Shown here piece after piece: positions 1 through 12,950 of a stretch of DNA of 64,000 bases; positions within the stretch are counted from its first letter, which is position 1, and the number at the start of each line of letters is the position of its first letter. Under the pieces are notes generated by a model. The model did not search any database. It was not told the DNA's origin and saw only the letters and a list, made by a program, of their open reading frames with translations. Source of the DNA: Streptomyces sp. NBC_00286 (GTDB taxonomy: Bacteria > Actinomycetota > Actinomycetes > Streptomycetales > Streptomycetaceae). The stretch is taken from assembly GCF_036173125.1 (NCBI RefSeq), contig NZ_CP108054.1, positions 1,302,001 through 1,366,000 of the forward strand. Reading direction: 5' to 3'. Position numbers and translations under genes: made by a program.

Positions 1-891
1 GATGGGCACCGGGACGGTGTTGCCGCCCATGTGCGCCAGAACGCCGCCTGTGGCCATGGACGCCATGGCGTGAGCAGTGATCGGGCTGGATGGCACATAG
101 TCGAGGACAGCGTCGACGCCCTGCGGAACTAGACGCCGGATCGCCCCGGTGAGGCCGCTGTTGGCCTCCCAGCCCTCGGATAGATTCTCGGTCGCAATGG
201 AGTCGACGGGGATGCCGTCGGCCTCCGCCAGCTTCTCGACGTCCTTGAGTCGCTCGCCGCTGCGGCCCACCAAGATCAGCCGGCCAATGCCGAACTGCTT
301 GGCGAACTTGACGCTCGCGGTGCCCATCGTGCCGGTCGCCGCGGTGATGACCACGGTCGCAGCCTGTGGCAGGTGGCACTCCTTCAGTATCCGGACGGCG
401 TTACCCAGGTCGTGGACCTTCGCGCCGACGTCAAAGCTGACGTTGTTGGGCAACCTGTCGAGCAGCCAGAACGGGACGCGAACGTACTCGGCCAACCCTC
501 CGTCGTGGTAGCGCTCGTACAGCGGCAACGGACCGTCGCTGAACGCCGCGTGGCCGATCATCGCGTACTGAGCACACATGTTCTCGCGGTCGGATCGGCA
601 GTAGACACAGTGACCGCAGCTGAGCTGGGGGTGGACCCGGACGCGCTCGCCTCCAGTGAAGCCCGGTACGTCGGGTCCGACCTCCGAAACAGTGCCTGCC
701 ATCTCGTGCCCGAGGATCGTTGGCAGCTGCTTGAAGGCCCCCATCTTGAGCAGCGACATCATCCCGGGGGCAAGGCCGGCGGACTCGACTTTGACGATCA
801 CTTCACCGGAAGCCGGTTCGGGAACCGGGACCTCCTCAAGGACAAGGGCACTCTCCGCGTCGTGGGCCCGCGTTGCCAGCATGGTGCTCAT
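1..891 (-). CDS. Zinc-binding MDR alcohol dehydrogenase-like protein (partial, 3' end outside window)
   Basis: Reading the minus strand from ATG at 891 gives about 297 residues before the window edge, so the C-terminus is missing. The GroES-like N-domain has the GHE motif (ILGHEMAG) and the four-cysteine structural zinc loop (CGHCVYCRSDRENMC). A Rossmann region follows (TGTMGTASVKFAKQFG). The usual catalytic CGxCHSD segment is replaced by AGLAPGMMS, so the catalytic-zinc cysteine is absent and the chemistry may differ from a classical alcohol dehydrogenase. The start overlaps the bicupin stop (ATGA) and its Shine-Dalgarno AAAGGAG lies inside the bicupin gene, so the two are translationally coupled. 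Substrate unknown. Confidence 0.85.
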   Translation of the reverse strand, partial: MSTMLATRAHDAESALVLEEVPVPEPASGEVIVKVESAGLAPGMMSLLKMGAFKQLPTILGHEMAGTVSEVGPDVPGFTGGERVRVHPQLSCGHCVYCRSDRENMCAQYAMIGHAAFSDGPLPLYERYHDGGLAEYVRVPFWLLDRLPNNVSFDVGAKVHDLGNAVRILKECHLPQAATVVITAATGTMGTASVKFAKQFGIGRLILVGRSGERLKDVEKLAEADGIPVDSIATENLSEGWEANSGLTGAIRRLVPQGVDAVLDYVPSSPITAHAMASMATGGVLAHMGGNTVPVPI

Positions 892-1883
892 GCCTGGCTC
901 CTTTCGACGGCTGCGCCCAGCCGCTCAGGCGAGTAGGGATCCGCAGTGCGCGTGGTATCGATGACCTGCGGAAGTTCGAGGTGCGACAAGAGCGAGACGT
1001 GGGTCGACCGGTCGCGCGGGATGCCGGCGTGGGCCAGGCCGAGCGGAATCCGCACGAAGTCGCCCGGATGCAGCTCAACGATGCCCCGCTGGGTCGCGAG
1101 GGTGCGCATTCCAGAGACCTGGTACTGGATCTCGTCGGCGTCGAGCGTCCGCCGGTAGCGCCGACTCCCGTCACGGGCCGTCGTGTTGACGTATCCGAGT
1201 CGAATCGTCGGTGTGGCGTAGATCCACGTGGCGCCGACAGCATCACCGATCGAGTGCACCCGCATCCGCTCGGGCTCGGCGTGCACGCGCTCGAGGAGCA
1301 ACGTCTCGTCCGCGGGGAACACCGCGATGTCGTGGCCGACCGTCCCCATGCACTGGGTGACGGCCTCGTTGACCTCACCCGGCTCCCAGCCGGGGAACGG
1401 CGGCATCACCGGCTGCGACGTCCGAATCGGCTCGACCAGCTCGGCGACCGGCGCGGGCAGGTAGAAGACCAGGTGGCTCTCCTTACGACCGTAGTTGTCG
1501 TGGCCGACCCCGCACGGGATCCGGGAGAACTCGCCCGGCCGGTGCTCGATGACCCCGAGCTCGGTCATCAGCGTCCGTTCACCATCGATCTGGTACGAGA
1601 GCTCATCGACATCGCAGTTGCGGTGGTAGAACGGCTGACGACCGTTCATGACCTGCCACTCGACCCGGAGTTGGTCGTTCTCGTACACCCCGCGCGGGGG
1701 CGCGAACCTCTGCTCGACGTACTTCTGCGGGAAGTGAACGATGGGCAGGAGCTCGTGATCATTCCACAGCTTGATCGGTAGCTTGCTCGGGTAAGGAGAC
1801 GCAAGAAGCAGATCCTCGTCGCGATCGATGCTGCGCAGTGGCCGATCAGATCTGATGGTCATCACGTCTTCGACGACTCTCAT
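888..1883 (-). CDS. Bicupin protein, homogentisate-dioxygenase-like
   Basis: 331 residues with two cupin halves. Half one has NCDVDELSYQIDGE followed by EHRPGEFSRIPCGVGHD. Half two has LDADEIQYQVSG followed by ELHPGDFVRIPLGLAHAG. The D/E-type first cupin motif and the PxGxxH second motif resemble the homogentisate 1,2-dioxygenase superfamily, so an iron-dependent ring-cleaving or related oxygenase is possible; the substrate is inferred only. The start at 1883 was chosen over an upstream in-frame ATG because GAGGAGGT sits just before it. It is first in an operon with the MDR dehydrogenase. A perfect 17-bp palindrome about 185 bp upstream links it to the MarR regulator at 11.5 kb. Confidence 0.82.
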   Translation of the reverse strand: MRVVEDVMTIRSDRPLRSIDRDEDLLLASPYPSKLPIKLWNDHELLPIVHFPQKYVEQRFAPPRGVYENDQLRVEWQVMNGRQPFYHRNCDVDELSYQIDGERTLMTELGVIEHRPGEFSRIPCGVGHDNYGRKESHLVFYLPAPVAELVEPIRTSQPVMPPFPGWEPGEVNEAVTQCMGTVGHDIAVFPADETLLLERVHAEPERMRVHSIGDAVGATWIYATPTIRLGYVNTTARDGSRRYRRTLDADEIQYQVSGMRTLATQRGIVELHPGDFVRIPLGLAHAGIPRDRSTHVSLLSHLELPQVIDTTRTADPYSPERLGAAVERSQA

Positions 1884-2067: not shown

Positions 2068-2084
2068 TATCAACCTGGTTGATA
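2068..2084. promoter_or_regulatory. Candidate MarR operator upstream of the bicupin operon
   Basis: TATCAACCTGGTTGATA is a perfect 8+1+8 inverted repeat. It matches TRTCAA-N5-YTGAYA, which recurs at 9329, 9348, 11394 and 11964. It lies in the promoter region of the minus-strand bicupin-dehydrogenase operon. Confidence 0.6.
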
Positions 2085-2477
2085 TATGTCTACGTACTTG
2101 ACGCTTGTCGCCTCGCGTCGCCCGTCACAGAGGGGTGCAGCTGGGCCCGGAGTGATGGATCAGAGGTCTTGGCCCCCCGGAGTGCCAGAAACGAGAACAC
2201 GGTCAGGCTGATCCCTGTCGCGTTTCCCACGGCCCTCAAGGACTGCTTGCGGACTGCCATCGAACTCCCGCGTCAGGTCAGCCACTTGTGCGTCCATGAC
2301 GGCGCGTGGACGCGACGCGACAGCGTTGCTGACCGAGCCGTTCGCGTCGCGCGACCGCCTCCAGACGCGCCCCCGGGCGGAGGATCGGATCAGGCGCGCC
2401 ACGCCGTGGCCGAGGTCGTCGTGACCACAGCAGCACGGCGCGCCTCGTTGGACTCGGCGGAGCTACGTCCATACCGT
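2085..2477. other. Intergenic, no gene recognised
   Basis: About 390 bp between the bicupin promoter and the end of the yihY-like gene. Minus-strand reading gives only short arginine-rich frames with no Shine-Dalgarno or family resemblance. I see no repeat or strong hairpin. Confidence 0.4.
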
Positions 2478-3446
2478 TCACCGTCCCCGCGCTCGGCGAA
2501 GGCACGTCTGCAGGTTGCGGATCGGCGTGAGCTCACGGCGCGTTCTCCACCATGTCAGCGGATGCGGCCAGCGAGTCTCGGGAGAAGGCCAGAACTCCTG
2601 GACGCCCGCATTGAACTCCGCCCCGAGGATGACCGCGAAGCCGAGGAAGAAGTTGAAGAGCAAGAAGGCGATGGCGGTTGCCAGGGCGCCGTAACTGATG
2701 CCGGCCTGTGCGGTCCAGCTGAGATATCGGCGCAGGCCCTCGCTTGCAGCCATGAAGAACACGCCCGCGACAAGTGCGCCTCCGAAAAGGCGACGCCATC
2801 GCAGCGTGTGCTGCAGAGCCAGCTTGTACAGGGTGGTGAGCGCGACGATCAGCAGCAAGCCTGTCCCGGGATAGTAGAAGATGTCGATGAGACGCAGGCC
2901 GGGTTCGCGCCACTCCACCGGCAGCACGCGGCCCGCGAGCGAGGGGCCAAGGGCCACCACAGGCAGAATCAGCACAGCGGCGATGAGGAAGCCGATGCAG
3001 AGGAGCAGGGCGAAGATGCGCTGCCAGACCGGGTGACGGGCAGATGCTTGCCCGTGTGCCGCGGTGATGGCGTCCACGAACGCGGCTATGGCTGACGAAC
3101 CGGCCCACAAGGACAGTGCGAAGCCGATCGAGAGCACGCCGCCGTGGCCCGGTTGAAGAACGTCGGCGACCGTCGGCGCCACCAGGTCGTCGCCTACGCT
3201 CGGGCTGATCAGCTTTCGGGAGAAGGTGATGATCTTGGATTCCACAACCGCGACGGTGTCCGGGCCGAACCAGTGGCCGACATAACCGAGGCTGCCGAGC
3301 AGGACGAGCAGGAGTGGCGCCAAGGACAGCATCTGCCAGAATGCGGCAGCGGCCGAGCGCATGAAGATCGAGTCGGCCCAGGACTTGGCCGCGACATGGA
3401 CGACCAGCCGACGGACCTGCCCGAGTTTCCTGACGACCCGGCCCAT
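2478..3446 (-). CDS. YihY/BrkB-family inner membrane protein
   Basis: 322 residues with about six hydrophobic segments (AFWQMLSLAPLLLVLLGSLG, IFALLLCIGFLIAAVLILPV and later ones) and the family C-terminal region ISYGALATAIAFLLFNFF-GAEFNA. The family is of uncertain function; the old ribonuclease BN name is a misannotation. The first in-frame ATG is at 3446, but its AGGA lies only one base upstream. The reading frame stays open further upstream, where AAGGAG is correctly spaced only from an ATC codon at 3485, so the true start is uncertain. It sits 28 bp behind a decayed ORF on the same strand. Confidence 0.8.
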   Translation of the reverse strand: MGRVVRKLGQVRRLVVHVAAKSWADSIFMRSAAAAFWQMLSLAPLLLVLLGSLGYVGHWFGPDTVAVVESKIITFSRKLISPSVGDDLVAPTVADVLQPGHGGVLSIGFALSLWAGSSAIAAFVDAITAAHGQASARHPVWQRIFALLLCIGFLIAAVLILPVVALGPSLAGRVLPVEWREPGLRLIDIFYYPGTGLLLIVALTTLYKLALQHTLRWRRLFGGALVAGVFFMAASEGLRRYLSWTAQAGISYGALATAIAFLLFNFFLGFAVILGAEFNAGVQEFWPSPETRWPHPLTWWRTRRELTPIRNLQTCLRRARGR

Positions 3447-3474
3447 GTCCTGCGCATCGTCGTCGAAGACTTCA

Positions 3475-3830
3475 TCAGACTTGATTGCTGTCTCCTTCGC
3501 CGAGGGAGGCCAGTTCCTCTGCTGCCGGGGTTCCGTGCGTGTGGAACGACTCGATGGTCTGCAGTTCCCAAGCCTGTTCCTGGGCACGTGCGGCCTTGCT
3601 CCAGGCCCGAGTCGCGAGCGACCGCCGTCAAGGAGATCTGCGTGGCGCTGGCGATGTAAGGGCTGACGCCGAGTCCGGCGACATAGGCGATGGCGGCAGC
3701 CAACTCGTCTGCGCGGCGCGTCGTGTGCCTGTGGGCACCGTGGATCAGGCGGTCGACCAGGCCGGGATCGGGCCATGCGATCTCGGCGACCAAATGCTGG
3801 CGGAGCCACGGCGCGCAATCGGCTGATCTG
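3475..3830 (-). pseudogene. Frameshifted remnant of an unidentified protein
   Basis: Two adjacent minus-strand frames look like authentic protein but do not join. The first reads through LVAEIAWPDPGLVDRLIHG and AAAIAYVAGLGVSPYIASA. The second reads AWSKAARAQEQAWELQTIES and ends in TGA at 3475-3477. The shift is near 3630. I do not recognise the family. It could instead be two overlapping small genes, but the first frame has no convincing start. Confidence 0.4.
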
Positions 3831-4048
3831 GTGCTCCCGCCATCCTCAGCGGATTGCTGGCGCAGCACATCCTGCCGGGAGCGACTCCCCTGCAGGGCGG
3901 GCGGCGCGACCTGCCTCCGCAAAGGCGCAAGGAGGGAGGGCCCTCCCCCTGTACGGCCGTCGCATGTGTGCTCAGACCGGTGTCACCATCGCTCCACCTC
4001 ACTCCTCGGCCACGAGGCCCCATCCGCGCGTCGGGGCTGGCCCCACGC

Positions 4049-4732
4049 CTAGCTGTGTGCACGGCGCACCAAGTACTCCCACCCGGCTTTGATCTGGTGT
4101 GGGTTCCAGATCTGCTCACGCTTGAACCGGGTCTCGGCCTCGTTCGATGCAGTGAGTACGCCGCCGGCAGCCTCAGCGAGGAGCTGGGTGTGGCAGGCGC
4201 GCTCGAGCAGCACCGCGTACATGACGGCCGTCGCAATGTCCGGGCCGACCGTCACGGCGCCGTGGTGCGGCATCAGTATCGCGTTGGCGTCACCGAGCCC
4301 CTGGGCAAGCTCTCGGCCCAGGTCCCTGGTCACGATCAATGCTCCTGTGACCGTGAACCGCGGCAACTGCGGATGGGCGAACGGCACTGCATCGTGGGAG
4401 ATGGGCAGGAGCTCGCGCTGGAGCGAGGAGAAGGCGCTCAGCGCGGGAGCGTGCGTGTGCACCACTGCCGCGACATCTGCACGGCGAGCGAGGATCTCGG
4501 TGTGGATGGGGAATTCCAGATGCCGGTTCCCGGTTCCCCGCAGCACCTTGCCCTCCGGCGAGACCAGGACAACCCGGTCCTCGTTGATCTCATCGAAGCC
4601 GAATCCCGAAGCTTTCATCCAGGCGCCCCTACCCTCAGGATCGCGGACTGAGGCGTGGCCCCACACCATGTCGGACAGGCCAGTGGTCGCGAGTGCGCGG
4701 CTGGCGCTCACGACGTCAGCAACAACATTCAT
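4049..4732 (-). CDS. Class II aldolase/adducin-family protein
   Basis: 227 residues. Zinc-ligand histidines are visible in VVHTHAP and MPHHGAVTVG, as in L-fuculose-phosphate aldolase and related lyases. The segments SDMVWGHASVRDP and GNRHLEFPIHTEI fit the substrate pocket region. AAGGAGG precedes the ATG at good spacing. It is the last gene of a run that starts at 8317 (DsbA-like, ECF transporter), 81 bp behind ecfT, which suggests the aldolase acts on a compound brought in by that transporter. Actual substrate unknown. Confidence 0.85.
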   Translation of the reverse strand: MNVVADVVSASRALATTGLSDMVWGHASVRDPEGRGAWMKASGFGFDEINEDRVVLVSPEGKVLRGTGNRHLEFPIHTEILARRADVAAVVHTHAPALSAFSSLQRELLPISHDAVPFAHPQLPRFTVTGALIVTRDLGRELAQGLGDANAILMPHHGAVTVGPDIATAVMYAVLLERACHTQLLAEAAGGVLTASNEAETRFKREQIWNPHQIKAGWEYLVRRAHS

Positions 4733-4813
4733 CTGGTCGAACCTCCTTCGAACGCGCCCGGGGGCCCGGCACAGGTTTCCGCCATCCGGATCCGCTCGAA
4801 CCCGAGACCGCCT

Positions 4814-5632
4814 TCAACTGCCAGTCGTGACCTGGACCAGGACGGACACCACGCACACGGCCAGCACCACGGCGAAGGCGACGGCGTCTCTCGACGTCGG
4901 CCGCGACGGCTGGGCTGAAATCTGGCCCGAGCCCCCCCGGGCCGTGATCGCGTCGCCCATCTCATCGGCGCGCCTGAGCGAGGCCGTCATCGCGGTGGCC
5001 AGCATGTCGATCATCTCGCTTCTGCGTCGACGCCAGCGCTCCCGCCGGGTCGTCGCAGCAACACGTGGGCGCAACCGCCGTGCAGCGAAAAGCACACGGA
5101 ACTCCTGGCTCAGGATCGGGAACGCCCGCAGGGTCAGCGCGAGGGTCACCGCCCAGTCATCGATCGGAAACCGCAACGCCTTGAACGGAAGGCCCAGCTT
5201 CGAGACAGCGGGCGCGACCTCCGAGACGTTGGTCGTCCACGACACCAGTGCGCAGATCCCCATCAGCGAGGCTGTCAGCAGGAGCAACTGCAGGTAGCCG
5301 AGCAGGCCGCCAAGACCGGCCGGGTCACCGCCTGCGGCGCCGAACGCCACGCCGCCGATGAGCAGGAGCACCCACAGCAGGGGCGGCATCGTGGGCAGCA
5401 CTCCCCGCGTGACGCCGGCCAGCCTGCCCACGGCCAGCGCGAACACAGCGAGCAGTCCGCTCGTCGTCCAGGTAGGGAAGGACACCAGCAGCACCGAGAA
5501 GACCGCCACGACGATCAGCTTGGTACCTGCCCACAAACGGTGGACGGGTGAGTTCCCGGGAACCGGACGCAGCAGCACCAACGGCTTGGTACGCCTGCGC
5601 TTCCTGACGGATTCGGTCTGTGCCGCGGTCAT
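4814..5632 (-). CDS. ECF transporter transmembrane component EcfT
   Basis: 272 residues. Several hydrophobic helices (LIVVAVFSVLLVSF, LLWVLLLIGGVAFGAAGG, LLLLTASLMGICALVSW) are followed by the conserved coupling-helix segment SLRRADEMGDAITARGG, the family ARG motif that contacts the ATPases. A last helix lies near the C-terminus. The ATG at 5632 overlaps the stop of the S-A-A fusion gene (ATGA), so this start is preferred over upstream in-frame ones. It forms a complete ECF transporter with that gene. Confidence 0.88.
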   Translation of the reverse strand: MTAAQTESVRKRRRTKPLVLLRPVPGNSPVHRLWAGTKLIVVAVFSVLLVSFPTWTTSGLLAVFALAVGRLAGVTRGVLPTMPPLLWVLLLIGGVAFGAAGGDPAGLGGLLGYLQLLLLTASLMGICALVSWTTNVSEVAPAVSKLGLPFKALRFPIDDWAVTLALTLRAFPILSQEFRVLFAARRLRPRVAATTRRERWRRRRSEMIDMLATAMTASLRRADEMGDAITARGGSGQISAQPSRPTSRDAVAFAVVLAVCVVSVLVQVTTGS

Positions 5633-7656
5633 CGAGCGCCTCCGGTGTGAGTCGGCGCCGGCACGAGTGTGCCCTTGTGCAGCTGCAGAGTGCGCGGACA
5701 CAGCTCGTCGAGCCCGGAGAAGTCGTGGGAGATGACGATCACCGTGAGTCCTGTGTCCCGGCGCAACTCGGTGAGCAGCGCCAACAAGCCACGCGAACTC
5801 GCAGCGTCGAGGCCCGCAAGTGGTTCGTCGAGGATGATCGCACGCGGCTCACGGGCCAGCAGGCTGGCAAGTACCACACGCCGCATCTGACCGCCGCTGA
5901 GCTGGTCGATACGGCGATTCGCCAACGCGGGGTCCAGACCGACAGTGACCAGGGCGCGCTCCACGCGGCTGTGGTCGCCGGGGTCGAACCCGGACGCCGA
6001 AGCGATCTCGAACTCGACGCTGGCACGCATCAGCTGGAGCCGAGCGGCCTGGAACGACATCGCGACCGCACCCACTTGGTCTGACACCGGACTGCCGTCC
6101 AGCAGGCAGCTGCCCTTCGTCGGCTCCACGAGTCCAGCCATGATCCACGCGAGTGTCGACTTTCCCGAGCCGTTCAGCCCGTGGATCAGCACGCCGTCAC
6201 CTTCGCCGATCGTAAGGTCGATGTCGTGGAGGGCCGTCGATGCCCACGGGGTGCCGCTGCCGTACTCGTGTCCGACGCCCCGCAACTCGAGCAGTGGTTG
6301 ACCGCTGCGGTGGCTCGGCGCGAGCTTGGCGGCCGGGACGGGCGCCGAGACCACCATGTCGACGTTGTCCTCGTTGCCAGTCAGGTTGACGATGCGATCG
6401 GCGGTGCAGGCCTCGTCGTTGAAGTGGGTGATGTGGACGATCGCCATGTCGTGGCGCTGGGTCAGCCCTGTCAACATGTCGATGAGCGTGTCCCGGCCAG
6501 GCTGGTCGACCATGCTGGTGATCTCGTCGGCGATCAAGAGGCGCGGCTCCCGAGCAAGCGCTGCAGCGACCGCAAGACGTTGGAGCTCGCCGCCCGACAG
6601 GGCTCCGGTGTCGCGTTCACCCAGCTCCGCAAGACCTACCTCGGCGAGCAAGCGGTCAACGTCGACGGAGACGCCGGACGGGAGACCCCACACGACGTCG
6701 TCGACGACGCGGGTACCGAGGACCTGGCTCTCCGGGTGCTGCATGACCACTGCGGTCCCACCGAACTGGCCAAGACCGACCGCCCCGGGGCGGTCGAGGG
6801 CGCCTGATGTGGCCTCACGACCGGAGAGCATCAGCATGAGAGTCGTCTTGCCGGACCCGTTGGCACCGGTGACGGCCACGTGCTCCCCCGACTTGATGGT
6901 CAGGTTCAGCGGGCCGACAGCGTCCTGGACCGTACCGGGGTAGCGGAAGCAGGCGTCGCGCAAGGTGACCGGCACGGGTGCGACCGGGCGGTCGTCGTGG
7001 GCGAAGTCCAGTTGGTGGACGTCTGGAACGCTGCCGAGTCGGGCGAACACTCGCGACACGGCCCACCAGGCGACCATGTTGATGATGGTCATGATGACCA
7101 TCGAGGTCGAGATGACGAAGATCGGCCAGTAGTCGATCAGCGTCGCCGCGGCGTCGCGCACCCAGTCGCCGACCGACTCCAGCGCGGGCACCACGCTGAG
7201 GATGTTCGCGACGCCGTCGGAGTAGCCGGTGATGAGCTCGAAGATCACGCTCCGGAATGCCGAGAGCACTGCCACCAAGGCTGCGACACCGACCCCAAAG
7301 ACGGCGCCCGCCGTGACGGCGGCGATGGAGATGCTCCAGATGCCTCCGCCCCGACGCTTCACGAAGCCGACCAGGCCACCGATGTAGGCACAGATCACTA
7401 TCACGCAGGGACCTGCCAGGCCGACGACGAGGAACGTGACGATGGTGCTGGCGATCGCCGCTGCTCCGAGCACCCGAAGACGGTGGCGGAACGCCAGCAG
7501 AGCCATCGGCACGGTGCCGAGCGTCAGAAGCGGGGCTGCGAACGGCAGCGCGGCGGCGGTGACTGCGATGGCGCTGCAGAGGGCTGCCATCACCGCCGCG
7601 TGCGCAAGTTCGGCTGGTTGCAGCGGCCCGGTTCGCCGGAACGCTTCAGTCTTCAT
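5629..7656 (-). CDS. Fused ECF transporter: membrane (S-like) domain plus two ATPase domains
   Basis: 675 residues. Roughly 1-215 are hydrophobic with about six membrane segments and resemble an ECF substrate-binding (S) component. Roughly 225-440 are ATPase 1: GANGSGKTT, LSGGELQRLA, LLIADE, switch HITH. Roughly 455-670 are ATPase 2: GLNGSGKST, LSGGQMRRV, AIILDEPLAGLD, switch VISHD. ATPase 1 has a less canonical Walker B tail (DEITSMVD). S-component and both EcfA subunits on one chain is a compact form of a group usually encoded by separate genes. It overlaps ecfT by 4 bp and follows the DsbA-like gene by 19 bp. Substrate not predictable. Confidence 0.87.
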   Translation of the reverse strand: MKTEAFRRTGPLQPAELAHAAVMAALCSAIAVTAAALPFAAPLLTLGTVPMALLAFRHRLRVLGAAAIASTIVTFLVVGLAGPCVIVICAYIGGLVGFVKRRGGGIWSISIAAVTAGAVFGVGVAALVAVLSAFRSVIFELITGYSDGVANILSVVPALESVGDWVRDAAATLIDYWPIFVISTSMVIMTIINMVAWWAVSRVFARLGSVPDVHQLDFAHDDRPVAPVPVTLRDACFRYPGTVQDAVGPLNLTIKSGEHVAVTGANGSGKTTLMLMLSGREATSGALDRPGAVGLGQFGGTAVVMQHPESQVLGTRVVDDVVWGLPSGVSVDVDRLLAEVGLAELGERDTGALSGGELQRLAVAAALAREPRLLIADEITSMVDQPGRDTLIDMLTGLTQRHDMAIVHITHFNDEACTADRIVNLTGNEDNVDMVVSAPVPAAKLAPSHRSGQPLLELRGVGHEYGSGTPWASTALHDIDLTIGEGDGVLIHGLNGSGKSTLAWIMAGLVEPTKGSCLLDGSPVSDQVGAVAMSFQAARLQLMRASVEFEIASASGFDPGDHSRVERALVTVGLDPALANRRIDQLSGGQMRRVVLASLLAREPRAIILDEPLAGLDAASSRGLLALLTELRRDTGLTVIVISHDFSGLDELCPRTLQLHKGTLVPAPTHTGGAR

Positions 7657-7675
7657 GTTCGCAGCCCTCTCCGCT

Positions 7676-8317
7676 TCAGCTGACGTCAGGCGTCAGGTCC
7701 TCGGGCTGCTGGCGCTTGATCTCCCAGAAATCCGGATAGGAAGCGAGTGTCAGTACGGCATCCCACAGCTTGCCGGCCTCTTCGCCCCGAGGGATGCGAG
7801 AGAGCACCGGACCGAACACCGCGACACCGTTGATGTGGATGGTCGGGACGCCGGCGATGGCGCCGGGCGCCTTCACGCCCTGGTCAGTGCTCGCGCGCAG
7901 CGACTCCTGGTACTCCTCCGAGGTGGCGGCGTCAGCCAGCTCGGCCGGCAGATCGACCTCGGCAAGCGCCTCCGCGATGATCTTGTCGAAGTCCTTCTTC
8001 AGCAGGTCGCCGAAGGCCTTGTTGTCGCCGTTGTGGATGCGCGAGCCCAACGCGGCGTAGAGCGGCTCCACGATCTCCGCGCCGTGCGCGCGCTCGGCGG
8101 CCGCCAACACCCGGACCGGCGCCCACGCCTTCGCCATGATCTTCGGGTTGCTGAACTGGGTAGGAAGGTCATCCTCATTGAGGATCGCCAGGCTCAGGAG
8201 GTGGAACGACACCTCGAAGTCACGGACCGCCCTCGCCTCCAGGAGCCAGCGGGACGTGATCCAGCTCCACGGGCAGAACGGGTCGAACCAGAAGTCGGCA
8301 CGGGCCTTGTCGGACAT
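7676..8317 (-). CDS. DsbA-family, mycothiol-dependent nitroreductase-like protein (copy 1)
   Basis: 213 residues. It closely resembles the mycobacterial Rv2466c family (my recollection): ADFWFDPFCPWSWITSRW at the N-terminus, GVPTIHINGVAVFGPVLSR with the cis-Pro loop, and RIPRGEEAGKLWDAVLTLAS near the C-terminus. The thioredoxin-fold active site reads CPWS. The second (resolving) cysteine of CPWC is serine, so it should act through a monothiol, mycothiol-linked mechanism or not as a disulfide exchanger. It heads the operon with the ECF transporter and aldolase. A paralogue lies at 8619. Confidence 0.85.
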   Translation of the reverse strand: MSDKARADFWFDPFCPWSWITSRWLLEARAVRDFEVSFHLLSLAILNEDDLPTQFSNPKIMAKAWAPVRVLAAAERAHGAEIVEPLYAALGSRIHNGDNKAFGDLLKKDFDKIIAEALAEVDLPAELADAATSEEYQESLRASTDQGVKAPGAIAGVPTIHINGVAVFGPVLSRIPRGEEAGKLWDAVLTLASYPDFWEIKRQQPEDLTPDVS

Positions 8318-8618
8318 GGCATACCTCTCAGTGAGATGAAATCGGGTGCGATGGGGATCGAGTCACGGCCGCTCACCCAATGTCTTGAGTCAGGTTCAGA
8401 CCGTGCTCTAGTGGATGGTTTTTTGCAGGTCAGCGCCTTCGCCGCCGGTGCGGCGGCTCAACGCGGGCGCACGATCGTGCACACGAACTGCGCGGCGTGC
8501 GACATCGGACGTAGCCGCAAGGAGAGGTGATCGCTCGTCGCAGCAGACTGGCTGAGGCTCTGCACCTCGGTTACTGAAGGCCCTCAGCCACCAAGTTCCG
8601 AGCGCCCAAGCCCGCAGC
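8318..8618. other. Intergenic between the two DsbA-like paralogues
   Basis: About 300 bp with no gene. A GTCTTGA/TTCAGAC pair near 8382-8401 is too imperfect to call an operator, and the 17-bp MarR-type motif is absent. Copy 2 could be co-transcribed with copy 1, or an unseen promoter may lie here. Confidence 0.4.
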
Positions 8619-9260
8619 TCAGCCGAAGTCCGGCTCGAGGTCTGCGCGGTCGCGCTTGAGCTCCCAGAAGTCCGGACAGGAAGCGAGCGTCAGGACGGCG
8701 TCCCACAGCTTGCCGGCCTCCTCCCCCGGCGGGACGATCCGGCCGATCACCGGCCCGAAGAACGCCACACCGTTGATGTGGAGAGTCGGAGTGCCGATAC
8801 CACCGCCGGGCACGTCCATGCCCTCACTGTTGCTCTTCTTCAGCGCGGCGTCCCACGTGGGGTCCGCCGCCGCCTCCGCCAGCTCAGCGGGCAGACCGAC
8901 CTCGGCGAGGGCGTCCGCGATCAGCACATCGAAGTCACGCGCGACGACGTCCTTGAATCCCTTGTTGCCGGCGTGGTGGATCCGCGAGCCGATCGCGGTG
9001 TAGAGCGGGCCGAGCATCTCACGGCCGTAGGCATCCTCCACCGCCGCGGCCACGCGCACCGGCGCGTACACCTTGCGCAGCATCTCCGGGTCATTCAGCT
9101 GGTGGGGCAGGTCGCCTTCATTGAGCACGACCAGGCTCATCACGTGCCACGTCACCTCGAAGTCGCGGACCTTCTGCGCCTCGAGGAGCCATCGGGAGGT
9201 GAGCCAGCTCCACGGACACAGTGAGTCGAACCAGAAATCGACATGAGGCTTTTCGGACAT
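8619..9260 (-). CDS. DsbA-family, mycothiol-dependent nitroreductase-like protein (copy 2)
   Basis: 213 residues, same architecture as copy 1: VDFWFDSLCPWSWLTSRW, GIGTPTLHINGVAFFGPVI, PPGEEAGKLWDAVLTLAS. It has the same CPWS active site. The start at 9260 has AGAGGAAA upstream; the longer frame back to 9353 runs into the operators and lacks a Shine-Dalgarno. Two tandem 17-bp palindromes lie 70-105 bp upstream, so it is probably under the MarR regulator. Paralogue pairs in the same orientation suggest duplication within the island. Confidence 0.85.
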   Translation of the reverse strand: MSEKPHVDFWFDSLCPWSWLTSRWLLEAQKVRDFEVTWHVMSLVVLNEGDLPHQLNDPEMLRKVYAPVRVAAAVEDAYGREMLGPLYTAIGSRIHHAGNKGFKDVVARDFDVLIADALAEVGLPAELAEAAADPTWDAALKKSNSEGMDVPGGGIGTPTLHINGVAFFGPVIGRIVPPGEEAGKLWDAVLTLASCPDFWELKRDRADLEPDFG

Positions 9261-9328
9261 GAAGGAGTTTCCTCTCGTAGCGGCTGGGTGATTCGCAACG
9301 CGACGTGGCGCCGACCACACCTCAGACC

Positions 9329-9345
9329 TATCAACGTTACTGACA
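9329..9345. promoter_or_regulatory. Candidate MarR operator, distal copy of a tandem pair
   Basis: TATCAACGTTACTGACA matches TRTCAA-N5-YTGAYA. It is separated by 2 bp from the next copy and lies upstream of the DsbA-like copy 2 gene. Confidence 0.55.
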
Positions 9346-9347
9346 TA

Positions 9348-9364
9348 TGTCAACGAAGTTGATA
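9348..9364. promoter_or_regulatory. Candidate MarR operator, second copy of a tandem pair
   Basis: TGTCAACGAAGTTGATA matches TRTCAA-N5-YTGAYA. Its centre is 19 bp from that of the preceding copy, so two dimers would bind on nearly the same DNA face. Confidence 0.58.
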
Positions 9365-9858
9365 TTTACTCCTGCGGGCCCCCTCCGGCAGACCGGAGGG
9401 GCAACAGGGGGCGGCTCGGGCCAGACGGCAGACCCTCAGTAGATGCATAGTCGTCGGCGGGGCACGCCCCACGCGTCCCCTCACAGCAGGCTTTGACCTA
9501 CTGCTCTCGCAGTAGCCGAGCGAGCAACCAGAATTCCGCCGGATCCCTGCACGCCATCTCGGCAACAGGGGCACGCCACACCGGAGCCAGGCGACCTACG
9601 CAATCACCGCCGAATTGTTGACAATAATGTTAGTGTTCTGATGGCGCTGTGGCGCACCGGAGATCCGTGTGTGCAGCGGTGGAATCGTCACCTCGGGAAG
9701 AGCGTCGACCACCCGACGGTCAGGCGGCCGTGCCACGTCCGACGTCACCCGGCGCCGGCCGTGGAAAGCCGGGCCGTGTCACGCCGACCCATGAGAGGAC
9801 TGCGCTCCGTCGCCCTAGGAGCGGTAGATCGACCAGATCCGGACGTAGGGAGAAAACC
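9365..9858. other. Intergenic with a GntR-like half-palindrome
   Basis: About 490 bp without a convincing gene; an open frame from 9649 joins the M24 gene but is arginine-rich and unlike protein. At 9614-9625 the sequence ATTGT-TG-ACAAT is a short inverted repeat of the kind bound by FadR/VanR-type GntR regulators. No GntR gene is in the window. Confidence 0.35.
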
Positions 9859-11109
9859 GTGCAGGCTATGCGTGGCGTCCAGGGGGTCTTGGGTATCCCC
9901 GCGCCTATCAACGAACCGATGTTCAGCACGGTGGAGCGGGATCGGCGCTGGGGTCGCCTGCGGGCCTTGATGGACGAGGAGGGCGTGGAGCTGCTGATCG
10001 TCCTGCCCGCCTGGGTCACCTCGGACTCGCTCTACATCGCCGACACGATCGGCGTCACCATATTTCCGCGAGAGGGCGACCCGATCCTGATCCTAGGCGG
10101 TGAGCACAGCAACTATGCCGTGGAGCGTCCACACTGGATCGACGACCGGATGAGCGCGACACCGTTCGGCTCGACTGCTCCCGAGTACGGGCTGGTCACC
10201 GCCGAGGTGCTTCGCCGGCGCGGCCTCGTCGGCCGACGCACGGCGATCGCCGGGCTACGCGGCGACGAGTACTCGTCAGTGCGGCAGCCCGAGGGTTATG
10301 CCGCACACACCACGGTGTCACGCATCGCAGAAGCCGTCGGCGGCGAGAACATCGTCGACGGGACCGCAATCCTTGGACGCGCACGGTACGTCAAGGGCGC
10401 AGAGGAGATCGCCCGCCTGGCCGCCAGCGTGCGCGTGGGCGAGGCATCGCTCGCTGCGATGGCGGCCTCGGCCAGAGAGGGCGTAGCCCAGGCCGAGGTG
10501 TTCGGGCAGATGCTGTTGGCGCAAGTCCGGGCCGGCGCAGACGTACTGCACATCGCCTGGGCACCCGGCCCTTGGGGCGCAATGCGGCATCGATACGTAA
10601 CCCCGCCGCCGGGAGTCCTCGAGCGGGGCACGTACGTCGCCACGGAGCTGATGCCCGAGATCCGGGGCTACCAGGCCCAGGTTGCCCAGCCCCTGGTGGT
10701 CGGATCCCCCTCGGCCCGGGCGCGCGACATCTTCGAGCGCAACGCCGCGGCGTTCGACATCGCCGTGGAAACGATGCGGCCGGGGAAACAGTGGGGTGAC
10801 GTCTTCGCAGCCGTGGAGTCCGTAGCGGGCGCGGACGACGGACACATGCTCACCCTCCTCCACGGCCGCGGACTCGGCAACGACGGACCACTGCTCATTC
10901 CCAACCGCGACCGGTCCCACGTGGCCGAGCTACCGATCACGGCGAACACCACATTCATCCTCAAGCCGTTCCTTGAGGTACCCGAGGCTCCCGTCCCATC
11001 CCCGCGAACCCACGATGTCACGTGGGGCGACACCGTCGTCGTGACCGAGACGGGCGCCGAGCGGCTGGGGACCCGACGGCGCGAGCTGACCGTCGTCGAC
11101 CAAGCGTGA
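9859..11109 (+). CDS. M24 (creatinase/prolidase-fold) protein with degenerate metal site
   Basis: 416 residues. The GTG at 9859 was chosen because AGGGAG lies 6 bp upstream. The N-domain (MFSTVERDRRWGRLRALMDE) and pita-bread C-domain follow aminopeptidase P/creatinase layout. Of the five ligands expected for metal-dependent M24 enzymes only the histidine (LHGRGLG) is evident: the Asp pair becomes Glu and Gln in VATELMPEIRGYQAQVAQP, the first Glu becomes Lys in FILKPF, and the last Glu is Gly in TWGDTV. It may be a metal-independent, creatinase-type hydrolase or an inactive homologue. It faces the DsbA-like gene divergently. Confidence 0.78.
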   Translation: MQAMRGVQGVLGIPAPINEPMFSTVERDRRWGRLRALMDEEGVELLIVLPAWVTSDSLYIADTIGVTIFPREGDPILILGGEHSNYAVERPHWIDDRMSATPFGSTAPEYGLVTAEVLRRRGLVGRRTAIAGLRGDEYSSVRQPEGYAAHTTVSRIAEAVGGENIVDGTAILGRARYVKGAEEIARLAASVRVGEASLAAMAASAREGVAQAEVFGQMLLAQVRAGADVLHIAWAPGPWGAMRHRYVTPPPGVLERGTYVATELMPEIRGYQAQVAQPLVVGSPSARARDIFERNAAAFDIAVETMRPGKQWGDVFAAVESVAGADDGHMLTLLHGRGLGNDGPLLIPNRDRSHVAELPITANTTFILKPFLEVPEAPVPSPRTHDVTWGDTVVVTETGAERLGTRRRELTVVDQA

Positions 11110-11140
11110 CAGCGGGGCCCCGGCGCGCAGCTGTTACCCC

Positions 11141-11395
11141 TCACTCTGCGACGGACCAGCGCTGCACCTGGAGCCCGGTCGGCGCCGACCAGCGCGCGAC
11201 CGCGCGGTCGTCCGTCGCGCGGCCTCGGCCAGCCGATCGCCGCGAGCGCTGCTTGATCTGTGCGAGGCTGGGGTTGGTCGAGGTGATGCCGTCTCGGAAC
11301 TTGACCATAGGCACCACGTGGTTGCCATCGTCGACGCGCCCAACGAAATCAGCCCCCCGGGCCTCCTCAATGTCGATGATCGCAAGGTTGCAATA
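11141..11395 (-). pseudogene. Truncated mycoredoxin/glutaredoxin-like gene (N-terminus lost)
   Basis: The minus strand reads IIDIEEARGADFVGRVDDG, then NHVVPMVKF and TNPSLAQIKQ, ending in TGA at 11141-11143. This is the C-terminal half of an Mrx1-type mycoredoxin (VPTVxFxDG...TNPS). The CxxC N-terminal half is missing: an in-frame stop (TGA) immediately precedes the segment and no ATG or GTG lies before the conserved part. A long arginine-rich tail follows the domain. A MarR-type operator abuts its 5' end. Either deletion removed the front half or a shortened product uses a later GTG. Confidence 0.6.
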
Positions 11396-11410
11396 TCAAC
11401 CCATCTGACA
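11394..11410. promoter_or_regulatory. Candidate MarR operator at the mycoredoxin remnant
   Basis: TATCAACCCATCTGACA fits TRTCAA-N5-YTGAYA and touches the broken 5' end of the mycoredoxin remnant, so the original promoter may survive although the coding start is gone. Confidence 0.5.
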
Positions 11411-11493
11411 CATCGGTCCCATCAACCGCAGCGCATCGTCACTCACGCCGTCCCCGGAGCCCGACGCCTCGCTGCACTCGCGACGCCTGGCCG

Positions 11494-11964
11494 CTACTTC
11501 GCTCCGTTCCGGCGTGATCGAACCGCCGATTCCCCAGCCCCGACGTTGCGCGCATCGATCGCGTGGAGCAGCTTCTTGAGCTCATGGCGCTCGCCGGACT
11601 CGAGTTGGGCCATCAGGCGTTCATCGGCGACGCGCACTGCCACTTCGGCCCGCTTCAACAGGGCCCTGCCCTTGGGTGTCAGCCGGGCGGGCAGGCTCCT
11701 GCCCGACGACACGGTAGCCGGCCGCGCGATCACGCCCATCTCCTGCAGGTCCCGCACGACCTTGTTCATCGCCTGCGGCGACACGCCGGCATGGCGGGCC
11801 AGCTCGGCGTTGGACTGAGACGGGAACATAGACAAGTTGCGCATGCACACGAACTCCGGCAATCCGATGCCGAACGGCTGGAGCTCCGCGGCCACCAGCG
11901 GACGCAGAGCGGCCATCACCTGGTAGAGCAGGAAGCCCAGCGGCTGATCTTCATGGTCATGCAT
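11494..11964 (-). CDS. MarR-family transcriptional regulator
   Basis: 156 residues with a winged helix: NAELARHAGVSPQAMNKVVR as helix-turn-helix, and GRSLPARLTPKGRALLKRAE as wing and the usual LTPKG motif. The start MHDHEDQP at 11964 was chosen since earlier frame is not protein-like. Its ATG overlaps the final base of a 17-bp palindrome with no Shine-Dalgarno, suggesting leaderless translation and direct autorepression. The same palindrome precedes the bicupin, DsbA-like copy 2 and mycoredoxin remnant, so it is the likely regulator of the island; the ligand is unknown. Confidence 0.87.
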   Translation of the reverse strand: MHDHEDQPLGFLLYQVMAALRPLVAAELQPFGIGLPEFVCMRNLSMFPSQSNAELARHAGVSPQAMNKVVRDLQEMGVIARPATVSSGRSLPARLTPKGRALLKRAEVAVRVADERLMAQLESGERHELKKLLHAIDARNVGAGESAVRSRRNGAK

Positions 11965-11980
11965 ATCAAGTAGTTTGACA
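11964..11980. promoter_or_regulatory. Candidate autoregulatory MarR operator
   Basis: TATCAAGTAGTTTGACA fits TRTCAA-N5-YTGAYA and overlaps the marR start codon on the minus strand. Confidence 0.6.
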
Positions 11981-12281: not shown

Positions 12282-12950
12282 CTACGGCCTTGTCCGAACC
12301 AGTCCTGCGTCGTACGCGAAGATGACGGCCTGGATGCGGTCCCTGGCTCCGATCTTGGCGAGGACCCGGCCGACGTGCTTCTTCACCGTGGATTCGGTGA
12401 GGACGAGCCGTTCGGCGATCTCTGTGTTGTTCCAGCCCCGGCCGATGGCCATAAGCACCTCCCGCTCACGGCCGCTGAGGGTGGCCAGCCGGGGGTCTTC
12501 GGTGGCAGGGGTGCTGCTCGGGGCGAGGACCTGATGGGCGTAGGCGTCCAGCAGGCGCCGGGTCAGGCTGGGGGCCACGACGGCGTCGCCGGTGGCGACC
12601 GCGTGGATGCCGGCGACGATCTCCTCGGGGCGTGCGTCCTTGAGCAGGAAGCCGCTGGCTCCGGCGCGCAGTCCGTCGTGGGCGTACTCGTCGAGGTCGA
12701 AGGTGGTCACGATGAGGATGTGGGTCCGACCGCCGGCGGCGGTGATCCGGCGGGTTGCCTCCAGGCCGTCCATGCCGGGCATGCGGATGTCCATCAGGAC
12801 GACGTCGGGGCGCAGTTCGGCTGCCATGCGGACGGCCTCCGCGCCGTGCTCGGCCTCGCCGACGCAGGTCAGGTCGGGGGTGCCCTCGATGAGCATGCGG
12901 AAGCCCATGCGCTGCAGGGGCTGGTCGTCCGCGATCAGCACCGTGGTCAT
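12282..12950 (-). CDS. NarL/LuxR-type response regulator
   Basis: 222 residues. Receiver domain with acidic pair ADD, phospho-acceptor Asp54 in VVLMDIRMPGMDG and Lys in LLKDA. The C-terminal LuxR helix-turn-helix reads LSGREREVLMAIGRGWNNTE and STVKKHVGRVLAKIGARDR. The start overlaps the kinase stop (ATGA). It is the last gene of an exporter-kinase-regulator operon, so it probably controls that exporter in response to an envelope signal or antibiotic. Confidence 0.93.
   Translation of the reverse strand: MTTVLIADDQPLQRMGFRMLIEGTPDLTCVGEAEHGAEAVRMAAELRPDVVLMDIRMPGMDGLEATRRITAAGGRTHILIVTTFDLDEYAHDGLRAGASGFLLKDARPEEIVAGIHAVATGDAVVAPSLTRRLLDAYAHQVLAPSSTPATEDPRLATLSGREREVLMAIGRGWNNTEIAERLVLTESTVKKHVGRVLAKIGARDRIQAVIFAYDAGLVRTRP

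What the first reader, a model, noticed from the sequence alone, without database searches (positions are those of the whole stretch)
2068..11980. A 17-bp palindrome in front of four units defines a MarR regulon across the island
TRTCAA-N5-YTGAYA occurs at 2068 (bicupin-MDR operon), 9329 and 9348 (DsbA-like copy 2, tandem), 11394 (mycoredoxin remnant) and 11964 (overlapping the marR start). Seen directly: exact 17-bp spacing at all five and promoter positions. MarR proteins commonly bind such 16-20 bp palindromes and regulate themselves. Inference: one effector-responsive MarR controls an oxidation and thiol-linked detoxification or catabolic module.
Basis: partly seen in the sequence, partly recalled or inferred. 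Interest (0 to 1): 0.75.

Follow-up and report, generated by a model that had tools for sequence, protein, structure and literature searches.

The report
Salicylate-type switch running a catabolic island
A 17-letter mirror-image DNA signal stands in front of five gene groups in one soil-bacterium gene cluster and at the matching places in a distant relative; it is likely the docking site of one regulator related to the tuberculosis bacterium's salicylate-binding repressor, which would switch on genes predicted to break down and detoxify phenol-like compounds.

Summary
All five sites exist; none of 100 shuffles gives one. The 9.85-Mb genome has only seven exact places, five here. Two one-mismatch palindromes lie about 9 kb beyond the window's left end, in a divergent promoter of a flavin-reductase/HsaA-like/FAH/extradiol-dioxygenase operon. 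A degenerate partner at 2087 makes the bicupin promoter a 19-bp-pitch tandem, like 9329/9348. The MarR is a homologue of Rv2887, whose solved structures show salicylate binding; all eight published ligand contacts are identical. Footprinting ties motif to regulator: 23 of 26 sampled genomes with an Rv0560c-like methyltransferase (the known Rv2887 target) carry the tandem before it; 28 of 30 examined mycobacterial relatives of this marR carry the palindrome near their own start (2 of 27 other MarR loci; 9 of 27 with a looser pattern). Kribbella catacumbae keeps the cluster with sites at all five equivalent units, with an open mycoredoxin where the window has a truncated one. Right arms appear to supply the -35 and lead into the -10, so repression released by a phenolic acid is the likely mechanism. 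Binding and ligand were not testable. New variant of a known kind; the conserved operator differs from the published GC-rich Rv2887 footprint.

The parts
2068..2084 (.). Operator, perfect palindrome TATCAACCTGGTTGATA, in the bicupin promoter (lies in the likely -35/-10 spacer on the minus strand)
   Evidence: promoter sequence; highest-scoring place of 100 kb with a matrix trained on methyltransferase promoters of other genomes (29.3)
2087..2103 (.). Degenerate partner operator TGTCTACGTACTTGACG, 19 bp from 2068; its right arm (minus strand TAGACA) is the likely -35
   Evidence: 2 mismatches; the pair is also found by the 36-bp tandem pattern with 2 mismatches; low matrix score on its own, 8.6
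888..1883 (-). Bicupin, 331 aa, predicted two-domain cupin with dioxygenase-like fold; first gene of a likely operon that runs out of the window (MDR, metallo-beta-lactamase-fold, ABM domain, PNPOx-like)
   Evidence: neighbours
1..891 (-). Start of the zinc-type MDR dehydrogenase, second gene of the bicupin operon (4-bp overlap)
9329..9345 (.). Operator TATCAACGTTACTGACA, downstream member of the tandem on the minus strand
9348..9364 (.). Operator TGTCAACGAAGTTGATA, upstream member; its right arm on the minus strand is TTGACA, the likely -35
8619..9260 (-). Rv2466c-like thioredoxin-fold protein, copy 2 (active-site letters CPWS)
   Evidence: PF22234 E 1.9e-66; Rv2466c chain 5xur E 2.1e-70
7676..8317 (-). 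Rv2466c-like protein, copy 1 (CPWS)
   Evidence: PF22234 E 8.6e-70
5629..7656 (-). ECF-transporter protein with two ABC ATPase stretches (membrane S-like part inferred), likely same transcript as the Rv2466c-like genes
   Evidence: best NCBIfam ECF ATPase models below their cut-offs; kept beside the Rv2466c-like genes in Kribbella, Lentzea and Rhodococcus rhodnii
4814..5701 (-). ECF transporter T component (CbiQ)
   Evidence: kept in Kribbella and R. rhodnii
4049..4732 (-). Class II aldolase/adducin family protein, last gene of the likely transcript
   Evidence: kept in the cluster in Kribbella, Lentzea, R. rhodnii
11394..11410 (.). Operator TATCAACCCATCTGACA, in front of the truncated mycoredoxin; corresponds to the Kribbella site 58916
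11141..11386 (-). Mycoredoxin remnant without a start codon at its beginning and without the part that holds CGYC in Kribbella
   Evidence: frame read; 66% identical over 47 residues to an open Kribbella frame
11494..11964 (-). marR, 156 aa, Rv2887-type regulator
   Evidence: PF01047 E 6.2e-9; Rv2887 chain 5hsm E 1.3e-45, residues 5-136 without gaps
11964..11980 (.). Likely autoregulatory operator TATCAAGTAGTTTGACA, overlapping the marR start codon
   Evidence: same overlap in Kribbella, S. violaceusniger and, with one mismatch, Lentzea
9859..11109 (+). M24-family peptidase/hydrolase, conserved neighbour (89% in Kribbella) without an operator of its own

Best explanation
The MarR protein encoded at 11494-11964, a relative of the salicylate-binding repressor Rv2887, likely binds the 17-bp palindrome TRTCAA-N5-YTGAYA over the promoters of five units (its own gene, the bicupin operon, the Rv2466c-like/ECF/aldolase genes, a now truncated mycoredoxin, and a flavin-reductase/HsaA-like/FAH/extradiol-dioxygenase operon outside the window) and is predicted to repress them until a salicylate-like phenolic acid would release it. 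Shown: the sites and positions, their concentration in this stretch of the genome, the MarR's relationship to Rv2887 and the identity of its eight ligand-contact residues, and co-occurrence of motif and MarR clade across genera. Inferred: binding, repression, effector, operon extents and catabolic function. At two promoters here two palindromes lie at a fixed 19-bp pitch; the right arm of the first coincides with a -35-like hexamer and that of the second leads into the -10 position, so an occupied operator would block RNA polymerase directly. Induction would bring out a two-component flavin monooxygenase, an extradiol and a bicupin dioxygenase, FAH hydrolase, aldolase, dehydrogenases, an ECF importer and mycothiol-type thiol proteins, fitting uptake and ring cleavage of a phenol with protection against quinone by-products.
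For: Motif real and clustered. A matrix built only from the tandem sites of 23 loci with an Rv0560c-like methyltransferase scores the seven island palindromes 19.6-29.3; the next place in 100 kb scores 11.1 and the best of 320 kb sampled elsewhere in the genome 14.2; the five reported sites are the top five of the 22 listed places scored (21 plus 2087). MarR = Rv2887 homologue; contacts G10, L20, V24, L35, F38, V39, R42, D114 (PMC5526998) all identical, R42 in 121 of 121 aligned sequences (window plus the 120 best of 1265 relatives). Tandem over the Rv0560c-like gene in 23 of 26 genomes, up to 2 mismatches per site. 36-bp tandem pattern, up to 2 mismatches: 24 of 394 actinomycete genomes (23 of one genus taken to be Mycobacterium, and the window's own), backward control 0. 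Site within -200 to +20 of the marR match in 28 of 30 mycobacterial loci against 2 of 27 other MarR loci. Kribbella: all 6 exact places of its genome (pattern TRTCAR-N5-TTGAYA) within one 15-kb stretch, at bicupin, Rv2466c-like, mycoredoxin and marR, plus a one-mismatch site at the flavin reductase. Of 79 bicupin loci the motif is in the 3 whose genomes were found to hold a close MarR homologue and in 1 of the other 76.
Against: No binding, expression or ligand data. Two exact genomic sites (2920100, 6100819) lie 60-75 bp before open frames that look unrelated, and places at 7086695, 2920100 and 6100819 score like the weaker island sites. 11394 has one weak half and serves a broken gene. Other MarR clades have similar palindromes: with exact TRTCAR-N5-YTGAYA the control is 9 of 27 against 28 of 30, and the control loci come mostly from other genera. 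2 of 30 mycobacterial marR loci lack a site. Lentzea's bicupin has none near it, and no site was seen at Kribbella's NmrA-like gene. 3 of 26 methyltransferase genomes lack the tandem. The published DNase footprint of Rv2887 is a different, GC-rich sequence, with a crystal structure. The -10 of the 9329/9348 promoter is poor (TAGGTC). For 76 bicupin loci MarR homologues were sought only within the fetched stretch.
Confidence: 0.83

Rival explanations
1. The palindrome belongs to another regulator of the island or a housekeeping factor; the MarR merely lies next to it.
For: A response-regulator-like and a kinase-like frame lie nearby at 12282-14308 (by their letters, not tested); a MarR gene need not control its neighbours; related palindromes occur at other MarR genes.
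Against: Motif follows this MarR clade across genera and to its own start; Rhodococcus rhodnii (L126) has several of the enzymes but, in the stretch fetched, neither this MarR nor the motif.
Confidence: 0.07
2. The MarR is a thiol or quinone redox switch (OhrR/MhqR-like) rather than a phenolic-acid sensor; oxidation of Cys40 releases it.
For: Regulon includes Rv2466c-like proteins and a mycoredoxin (remnant); Cys40 is the only cysteine and is kept in 121 of 121 aligned sequences; it lies between pocket residues V39 and R42.
Against: No cysteine near the N terminus as in OhrR (recalled); all eight salicylate contacts identical to Rv2887; the Rv0560c promoter responds to salicylate in published work (abstract passage).
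Confidence: 0.2
3. The sites are ordinary strong promoters (TTGACA, TTGATA) that look palindromic by chance.
For: The right arms coincide with -35 and -10 positions.
Against: Left arms are outside the promoter consensus yet conserved; 0 in 100 shuffles; only 7 exact places in 9.85 Mb; 36-bp tandem absent from 370 of 394 genomes.
Confidence: 0.03
4. The published GC-rich 27-bp sequence is the true Rv2887-type operator and the palindrome is bound by a second repressor.
For: DNase I footprint and a crystal structure with that DNA (PMC5526998); its authors suggested more than one repressor.
Against: With up to 3 mismatches that 27-mer occurs in 3 of 297 genomes of the genus, one of them about 1.7 kb from the tandem (the other two places were not examined), while the palindrome is conserved over both the target and most regulator genes. 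The published promoter elements whose mutation removed induction or repression fit the palindrome by their letters and spacing (PMC3317779); I did not see that promoter's sequence. No exact hit means M. tuberculosis is probably not among the 297.
Confidence: 0.1

Closest known systems
Rv2887 (MarR family, Mycobacterium tuberculosis; PDB 5hsm, 5hso, 5x7z, 5x80) and its target Rv0560c
   Same: Same clade (E 1.3e-45, gap-free over residues 5-136), same residue numbering, identical salicylate contacts, DNA contacts R57, Q64, R81, R89 kept; same tandem operator over Rv0560c-like promoters.
   Different: Contact residue 62 is Ser, not Thr. No Rv0560c-like methyltransferase found in this genome at E 1e-40 (7 of 54 candidates were scored); instead a catabolic/thiol cluster. 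The palindrome is not the GC-rich footprint published for Rv2887.
HsaA/HsaB-type two-component flavin monooxygenases with extradiol dioxygenases (steroid and aromatic catabolism)
   Same: HsaA-like protein matches 3-HSA hydroxylase 2rfq (E 4e-63) and XiaF (E 9e-73); flavin reductase, glyoxalase-fold extradiol-dioxygenase-like and FAH genes alongside.
   Different: Likely regulated by a MarR palindrome; the set also includes a bicupin, MDR, aldolase and ECF importer. Substrate unknown.
Rv2466c mycothiol-dependent reductases
   Same: PF22234, E 1.9e-66 and 8.6e-70.
   Different: Both copies read CPWS where 3 of the 4 solved chains found read CPWC; the fourth, 5xur, reads CPWS.
Homogentisate/quercetin/gentisate/salicylate bicupin dioxygenases
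   Same: Fold class only: best Foldseek matches 1y3t, 4aq2, 1ey2; 3bu7 and 2phd further down.
   Different: Query-normalised TM 0.33-0.53 and 8-16% identity among the 50 listed; no close solved relative by sequence.

Membership tests
MarR family | MarR winged-helix domain | tested here: met
   PF01047 36.1 bits against cut-off 24.6
Rv2887-type MarR repressors | Close sequence relationship to Rv2887 across the whole fold | tested here: met
   5hsm E 1.3e-45, residues 5-136 without gaps; next PDB hit 2.5e-10
Rv2887-type MarR repressors | Salicylate pocket residues G10, L20, V24, L35, F38, V39, R42, D114 | tested here: met
   8 of 8 identical (contacts from PMC5526998)
Rv2887-type MarR repressors | DNA-contact residues R57, T62, Q64, R81, R89 | tested here: inconclusive
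   4 of 5 identical; residue 62 is Ser, a conservative change
Rv2887-type MarR repressors | Operator sequence shared with clade members at target and own promoter | tested here: met
   sequence only, no binding
Rv2887-type MarR repressors | Salicylate-released repression | not testable with these tools
   needs protein and ligand
Rv2887/Rv0560c methyltransferase system | An Rv0560c-like methyltransferase gene under the operator | tested here: not met
   0 matches in the window's genome at E <= 1e-40, 7 of 54 candidates scored; so it is filed with the regulator clade, not with this two-gene system
OhrR-type redox MarR | Reactive cysteine near the N terminus (recalled) | tested here: not met
   only cysteine is C40
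Rv2466c-like mycothiol-dependent nitroreductases | PF22234 domain | tested here: met
Rv2466c-like mycothiol-dependent nitroreductases | CPWC active site | tested here: not met
   CPWS in both copies; CPWC in 3 of 4 solved chains; so 'Rv2466c-like' is used, not 'nitroreductase'

The most novel reading that the evidence does not exclude
The conserved operator of the Rv2887 clade is a promoter-embedded tandem palindrome: two 17-bp sites at a 19-bp pitch set by the -35/-10 distance, so that one repressor array and one sigma-A promoter are the same sequence. The published GC-rich Rv2887 footprint is then not the conserved operator, and a regulator known from mycobacterial drug studies is, in Streptomyces and Kribbella, the substrate switch of a phenol/quinone catabolic island.
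Probability: 0.7. Interest if true: 0.68.

Novelty: new variant of a known kind. Interest (0 to 1): 0.57.

Why it matters
It turns an uncharacterised actinomycete gene cluster into a testable regulon with a predicted inducer class. It gives a conserved operator consensus for the Rv2887 clade that fits the published promoter elements but not the published footprint, a conflict the footprint's authors explained by suggesting more than one repressor. It shows one regulator-operator pair that, by sequence, serves a methyltransferase in mycobacteria and a catabolic island in Streptomyces and Kribbella.

Tried and rejected
Chance or promoter mimicry: rejected by shuffles, the whole-genome count and the 394-genome tandem search. 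Regulation by the neighbouring two-component-like genes: not tested further. First AlphaFold model of the bicupin (13 sequences, pLDDT 47.8) was discarded; the second (38 sequences, pLDDT 92.7) was used for the fold search. A first comparison of MarR loci used a looser pattern for the mycobacterial loci than for the controls; it was unfair and was redone with equal patterns (28 of 30 against 2 of 27 for TRTCAA-N5-TTGAYA with up to 1 mismatch; 21 of 30 against 2 of 27 exact; 28 of 30 against 9 of 27 for exact TRTCAR-N5-YTGAYA; 29 of 30 against 10 of 27 with 1 mismatch). The ORF listed at 11134-11385 is in another frame than the mycoredoxin remnant and has no Pfam hit. Literature: seven searches; one search returned nothing, held 300 papers of which 20 were listed, mostly noise. 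Opened: PMC5526998 (outline with abstract, section 5, passages), PMC3317779 (section 11, passages), PMC4301838 (passages), PMC9598822 (passages); the rest seen as listings. In what I saw, no paper reports this palindrome for Rv2887 or this regulon. Winglee 2015 and Warrier 2016 are not held; nothing of them was read.


Full report
What was checked. The pattern TRTCAA-N5-YTGAYA matches at 2068, 9329, 9348, 11394 and 11964 as stated; 100 dinucleotide shuffles of the window gave none. In the whole genome (9,853,519 bases, one contig; the window is 1302001-1366000) there are seven distinct exact places, five in the window. With one mismatch there are 21 distinct places, seven of them within 1293088-1313980; even spreading would put 0.04 there, binomial p 2e-14. 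The backward-read control had 5 hits per strand against 19 and 18.

More sites. Two more palindromes lie at genome 1293088 and 1293148, about 9 kb left of the window, in a divergent promoter. Leftward are a flavin reductase, an HsaA-like flavin monooxygenase, an FAH hydrolase and a glyoxalase-fold extradiol-dioxygenase-like protein; rightward an NmrA-like reductase. The bicupin promoter has a degenerate second palindrome at 2087, 19 bp from the first, the same pitch as 9329/9348.

The regulator. The 156-residue product of 11494-11964 is a MarR protein whose best solved relative is Rv2887 of Mycobacterium tuberculosis (E 1.3e-45, residues 5-136 without gaps; next hit 2.5e-10). Gao et al. 2017 (PMC5526998; abstract, section 5 and passages read) report salicylate and PAS contacts G10, L20, V24, L35, F38, V39, R42 and D114. 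All eight are identical here, and R42 is kept in 121 of 121 aligned sequences, the window's and its 120 best of 1265 database relatives. Of the DNA-contact residues named, R57, Q64, R81 and R89 are identical and T62 is Ser.

Phylogenetic footprinting, target side. The known target of Rv2887 is the methyltransferase Rv0560c: the protein binds upstream of it, and its overexpression represses the gene (PMC4301838, passages). I searched 394 actinomycete genomes with an Rv0560c-like protein from G078: 26 had a match at E 1e-40, 25 of them in one genus taken to be Mycobacterium. In 23 of these 26, two palindromes at exactly 19-bp pitch, each within 2 mismatches of TRTCAA-N5-TTGAYA, lie in front of the best copy. 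Thirty loci were examined; the 7 without the tandem are three best copies (L083, L093, L095) and four second copies. In all 23 the right arm of the first site is TTGACA, and the first ATGA, taken as the start, follows the second site within 4-11 bases. A single 36-bp tandem pattern with up to 2 mismatches hit 24 of 394 genomes: 23 of that genus and the window's own, with no hit for the backward control. All places but one (G139 contig 36) are these methyltransferase promoters or the two tandem promoters of the window.

Fit to published promoter elements. Schuessler and Parish 2012 (PMC3317779; [quoted passage not shown] The tandem operator predicts TTGACA, TA, TATC...TTGA, TATA, with 17 bp between the hexamers. 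Mutation of PM2 gave high constitutive activity, and the mutation that changed the -35 removed induction. The 27-bp GC-rich footprint of Gao et al. lies elsewhere; with up to 3 mismatches it occurs in 3 of 297 genomes of the genus, once about 1.7 kb from that genome's tandem. I did not see the M. tuberculosis promoter sequence itself, so this fit is by the elements and spacing in the text.

Phylogenetic footprinting, regulator side. Of 60 genomes of that genus, 47 hold a relative of this MarR at E 1e-25; 30 loci were returned for 58 matches. In 28 of 30 a palindrome TRTCAA-N5-TTGAYA (up to one mismatch) lies within -200 to +20 of the match start, against 2 of 27 loci of other MarR genes, which are mostly from other genera; nine of the 30 and none of the 27 have a 19-bp tandem. 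With the looser exact pattern TRTCAR-N5-YTGAYA the controls rise to 9 of 27, so the palindrome shape is shared beyond this clade. In the window's own genus, G022 has a 51% identical MarR with an exact site at its start and a methyltransferase-like frame on the other side.

The same island elsewhere. Of 79 bicupin loci, the motif with up to one mismatch is in three (Kribbella catacumbae, Streptomyces violaceusniger, Lentzea indica) plus one stray. These three genomes hold the close MarR homologue (82, 86 and 65% identical), in Kribbella beyond the fetched slice but on the same contig; for the other 76 loci only the fetched stretch, at most 10 kb either side, was looked at. Kribbella keeps the cluster, with sites at bicupin (44573/44592), the Rv2466c-like genes (56171/56190), mycoredoxin (58916), marR start (59440) and flavin reductase (67407, one mismatch); its NmrA-like gene lies elsewhere and showed no site. 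The six exact places for TRTCAR-N5-TTGAYA in its genome are all in this stretch. An open mycoredoxin frame with CGYC follows site 58916. In the window the corresponding site 11394 is followed directly by the middle of that gene, so the remnant looks like a 5' deletion. None of the 60 sampled genomes of the window's own genus has a convincing bicupin (best E 3.9e-4), although other Streptomyces species do: patchy, probably horizontal spread.

Independent score. A matrix trained only on the 23 methyltransferase promoters gives the seven island palindromes 19.6-29.3 in the 100 kb 1266001-1366000; the next place has 11.1, and the best of 320 kb from 16 other stretches 14.2. Among 22 listed genomic places the five reported sites are the top five, but three places outside the island (7086695, inside a gene; 2920100; 6100819) score 20.8-21.7, like the weaker island sites. 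These may be chance or further targets.

Likely mechanism. The right arm of the upstream palindrome coincides with the -35 (TTGACA; TAGACA at bicupin) and the right arm of the downstream one leads into the -10 position (TTGATAATAAT at bicupin; TTGATAGGTC, a poor -10, at the Rv2466c-like genes; TTGATATATAT in Kribbella). A dimer on either site would cover polymerase contacts, so repression is the natural reading. At marR the site overlaps the start codon, which points to autoregulation. Release by a salicylate-like phenolic acid follows from the pocket and from the published salicylate response of the Rv0560c promoter. This is inference.

What the regulon may do. The bicupin has no close solved relative. 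Its model (pLDDT 92.7) resembles quercetin and homogentisate dioxygenases, more weakly gentisate and salicylate dioxygenases (query TM 0.33-0.53 in the 50 listed). In the 79 bicupin loci an MDR homologue is present in 70, FAH in 57, class II aldolase in 36, the extradiol-dioxygenase-like gene in 18 (each time with FAH), the metallo-beta-lactamase-fold gene in 16, but the HsaA-like gene in only 3 and Rv2466c-like genes in 2 (E 1e-20, half length, within the fetched stretch). Ring cleavage of a phenolic compound with thiol and quinone protection is the simplest reading; the substrate is unknown.

Verdict. The regulator is filed with the Rv2887 clade, not with the Rv2887/Rv0560c system, because no such methyltransferase was found in this genome. 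What is new is the catabolic regulon and the conserved tandem operator. Binding, effector and substrate remain to be shown.

Noticed in passing
genome 1293088-1293104 and 1293148-1293164 (L012:7089, 7149): Two one-mismatch palindromes in a divergent promoter: flavin reductase/HsaA-like/FAH/extradiol dioxygenase one way, NmrA-like reductase the other. Kribbella has a matching one-mismatch site at its flavin reductase.
   Followed up: yes
window 7676-9260: Both Rv2466c-like copies read CPWS where 3 of 4 solved relatives read CPWC, suggesting a one-cysteine mechanism.
   Followed up: partly
L201-L202 (S. violaceusniger, contig 493001-529000): The cluster looks decayed there: metallo-beta-lactamase-fold gene matched in separate pieces, aldolase, M24 and mycoredoxin only as fragments, while marR, its site and bicupin-MDR remain.
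   Followed up: partly
L126 (Rhodococcus rhodnii): Bicupin, MDR, aldolase, two Rv2466c-like genes and the ECF genes together, but no close MarR homologue and no palindrome in the stretch fetched, so another regulator probably serves it.
   Followed up: partly
L015 (G022, same genus as the window) and L014 (G078): Relatives of this MarR (51 and 52% identical) with the exact palindrome at their start and a methyltransferase-like frame running the other way from the same promoter region; G022 shows the methyltransferase version also exists in the window's own genus.
   Followed up: partly
L022, L024, L025, L027, L032, L033, L034: Other MarR genes (33-38% identical) with the related palindrome TRTCAGG-N3-CCTGAYA near their own start.
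   Followed up: no
L035 and L039: MarR genes with an exact TATCAAG-N3-CTTGATA site and a second, one-mismatch copy at 15-bp pitch, unlike the 19-bp pitch here.
   Followed up: no
G139 contig 36: 97549-97584: The only tandem place of the 394-genome search outside methyltransferase promoters and the window's genome (2 mismatches, one strand); gene not looked at.
   Followed up: no
genome 2920100 and 6100819: Two exact single palindromes 60-75 bp before a secreted-looking 638-aa frame and a lipoprotein-like frame behind a LacI-like one; no tandem reported there.
   Followed up: partly
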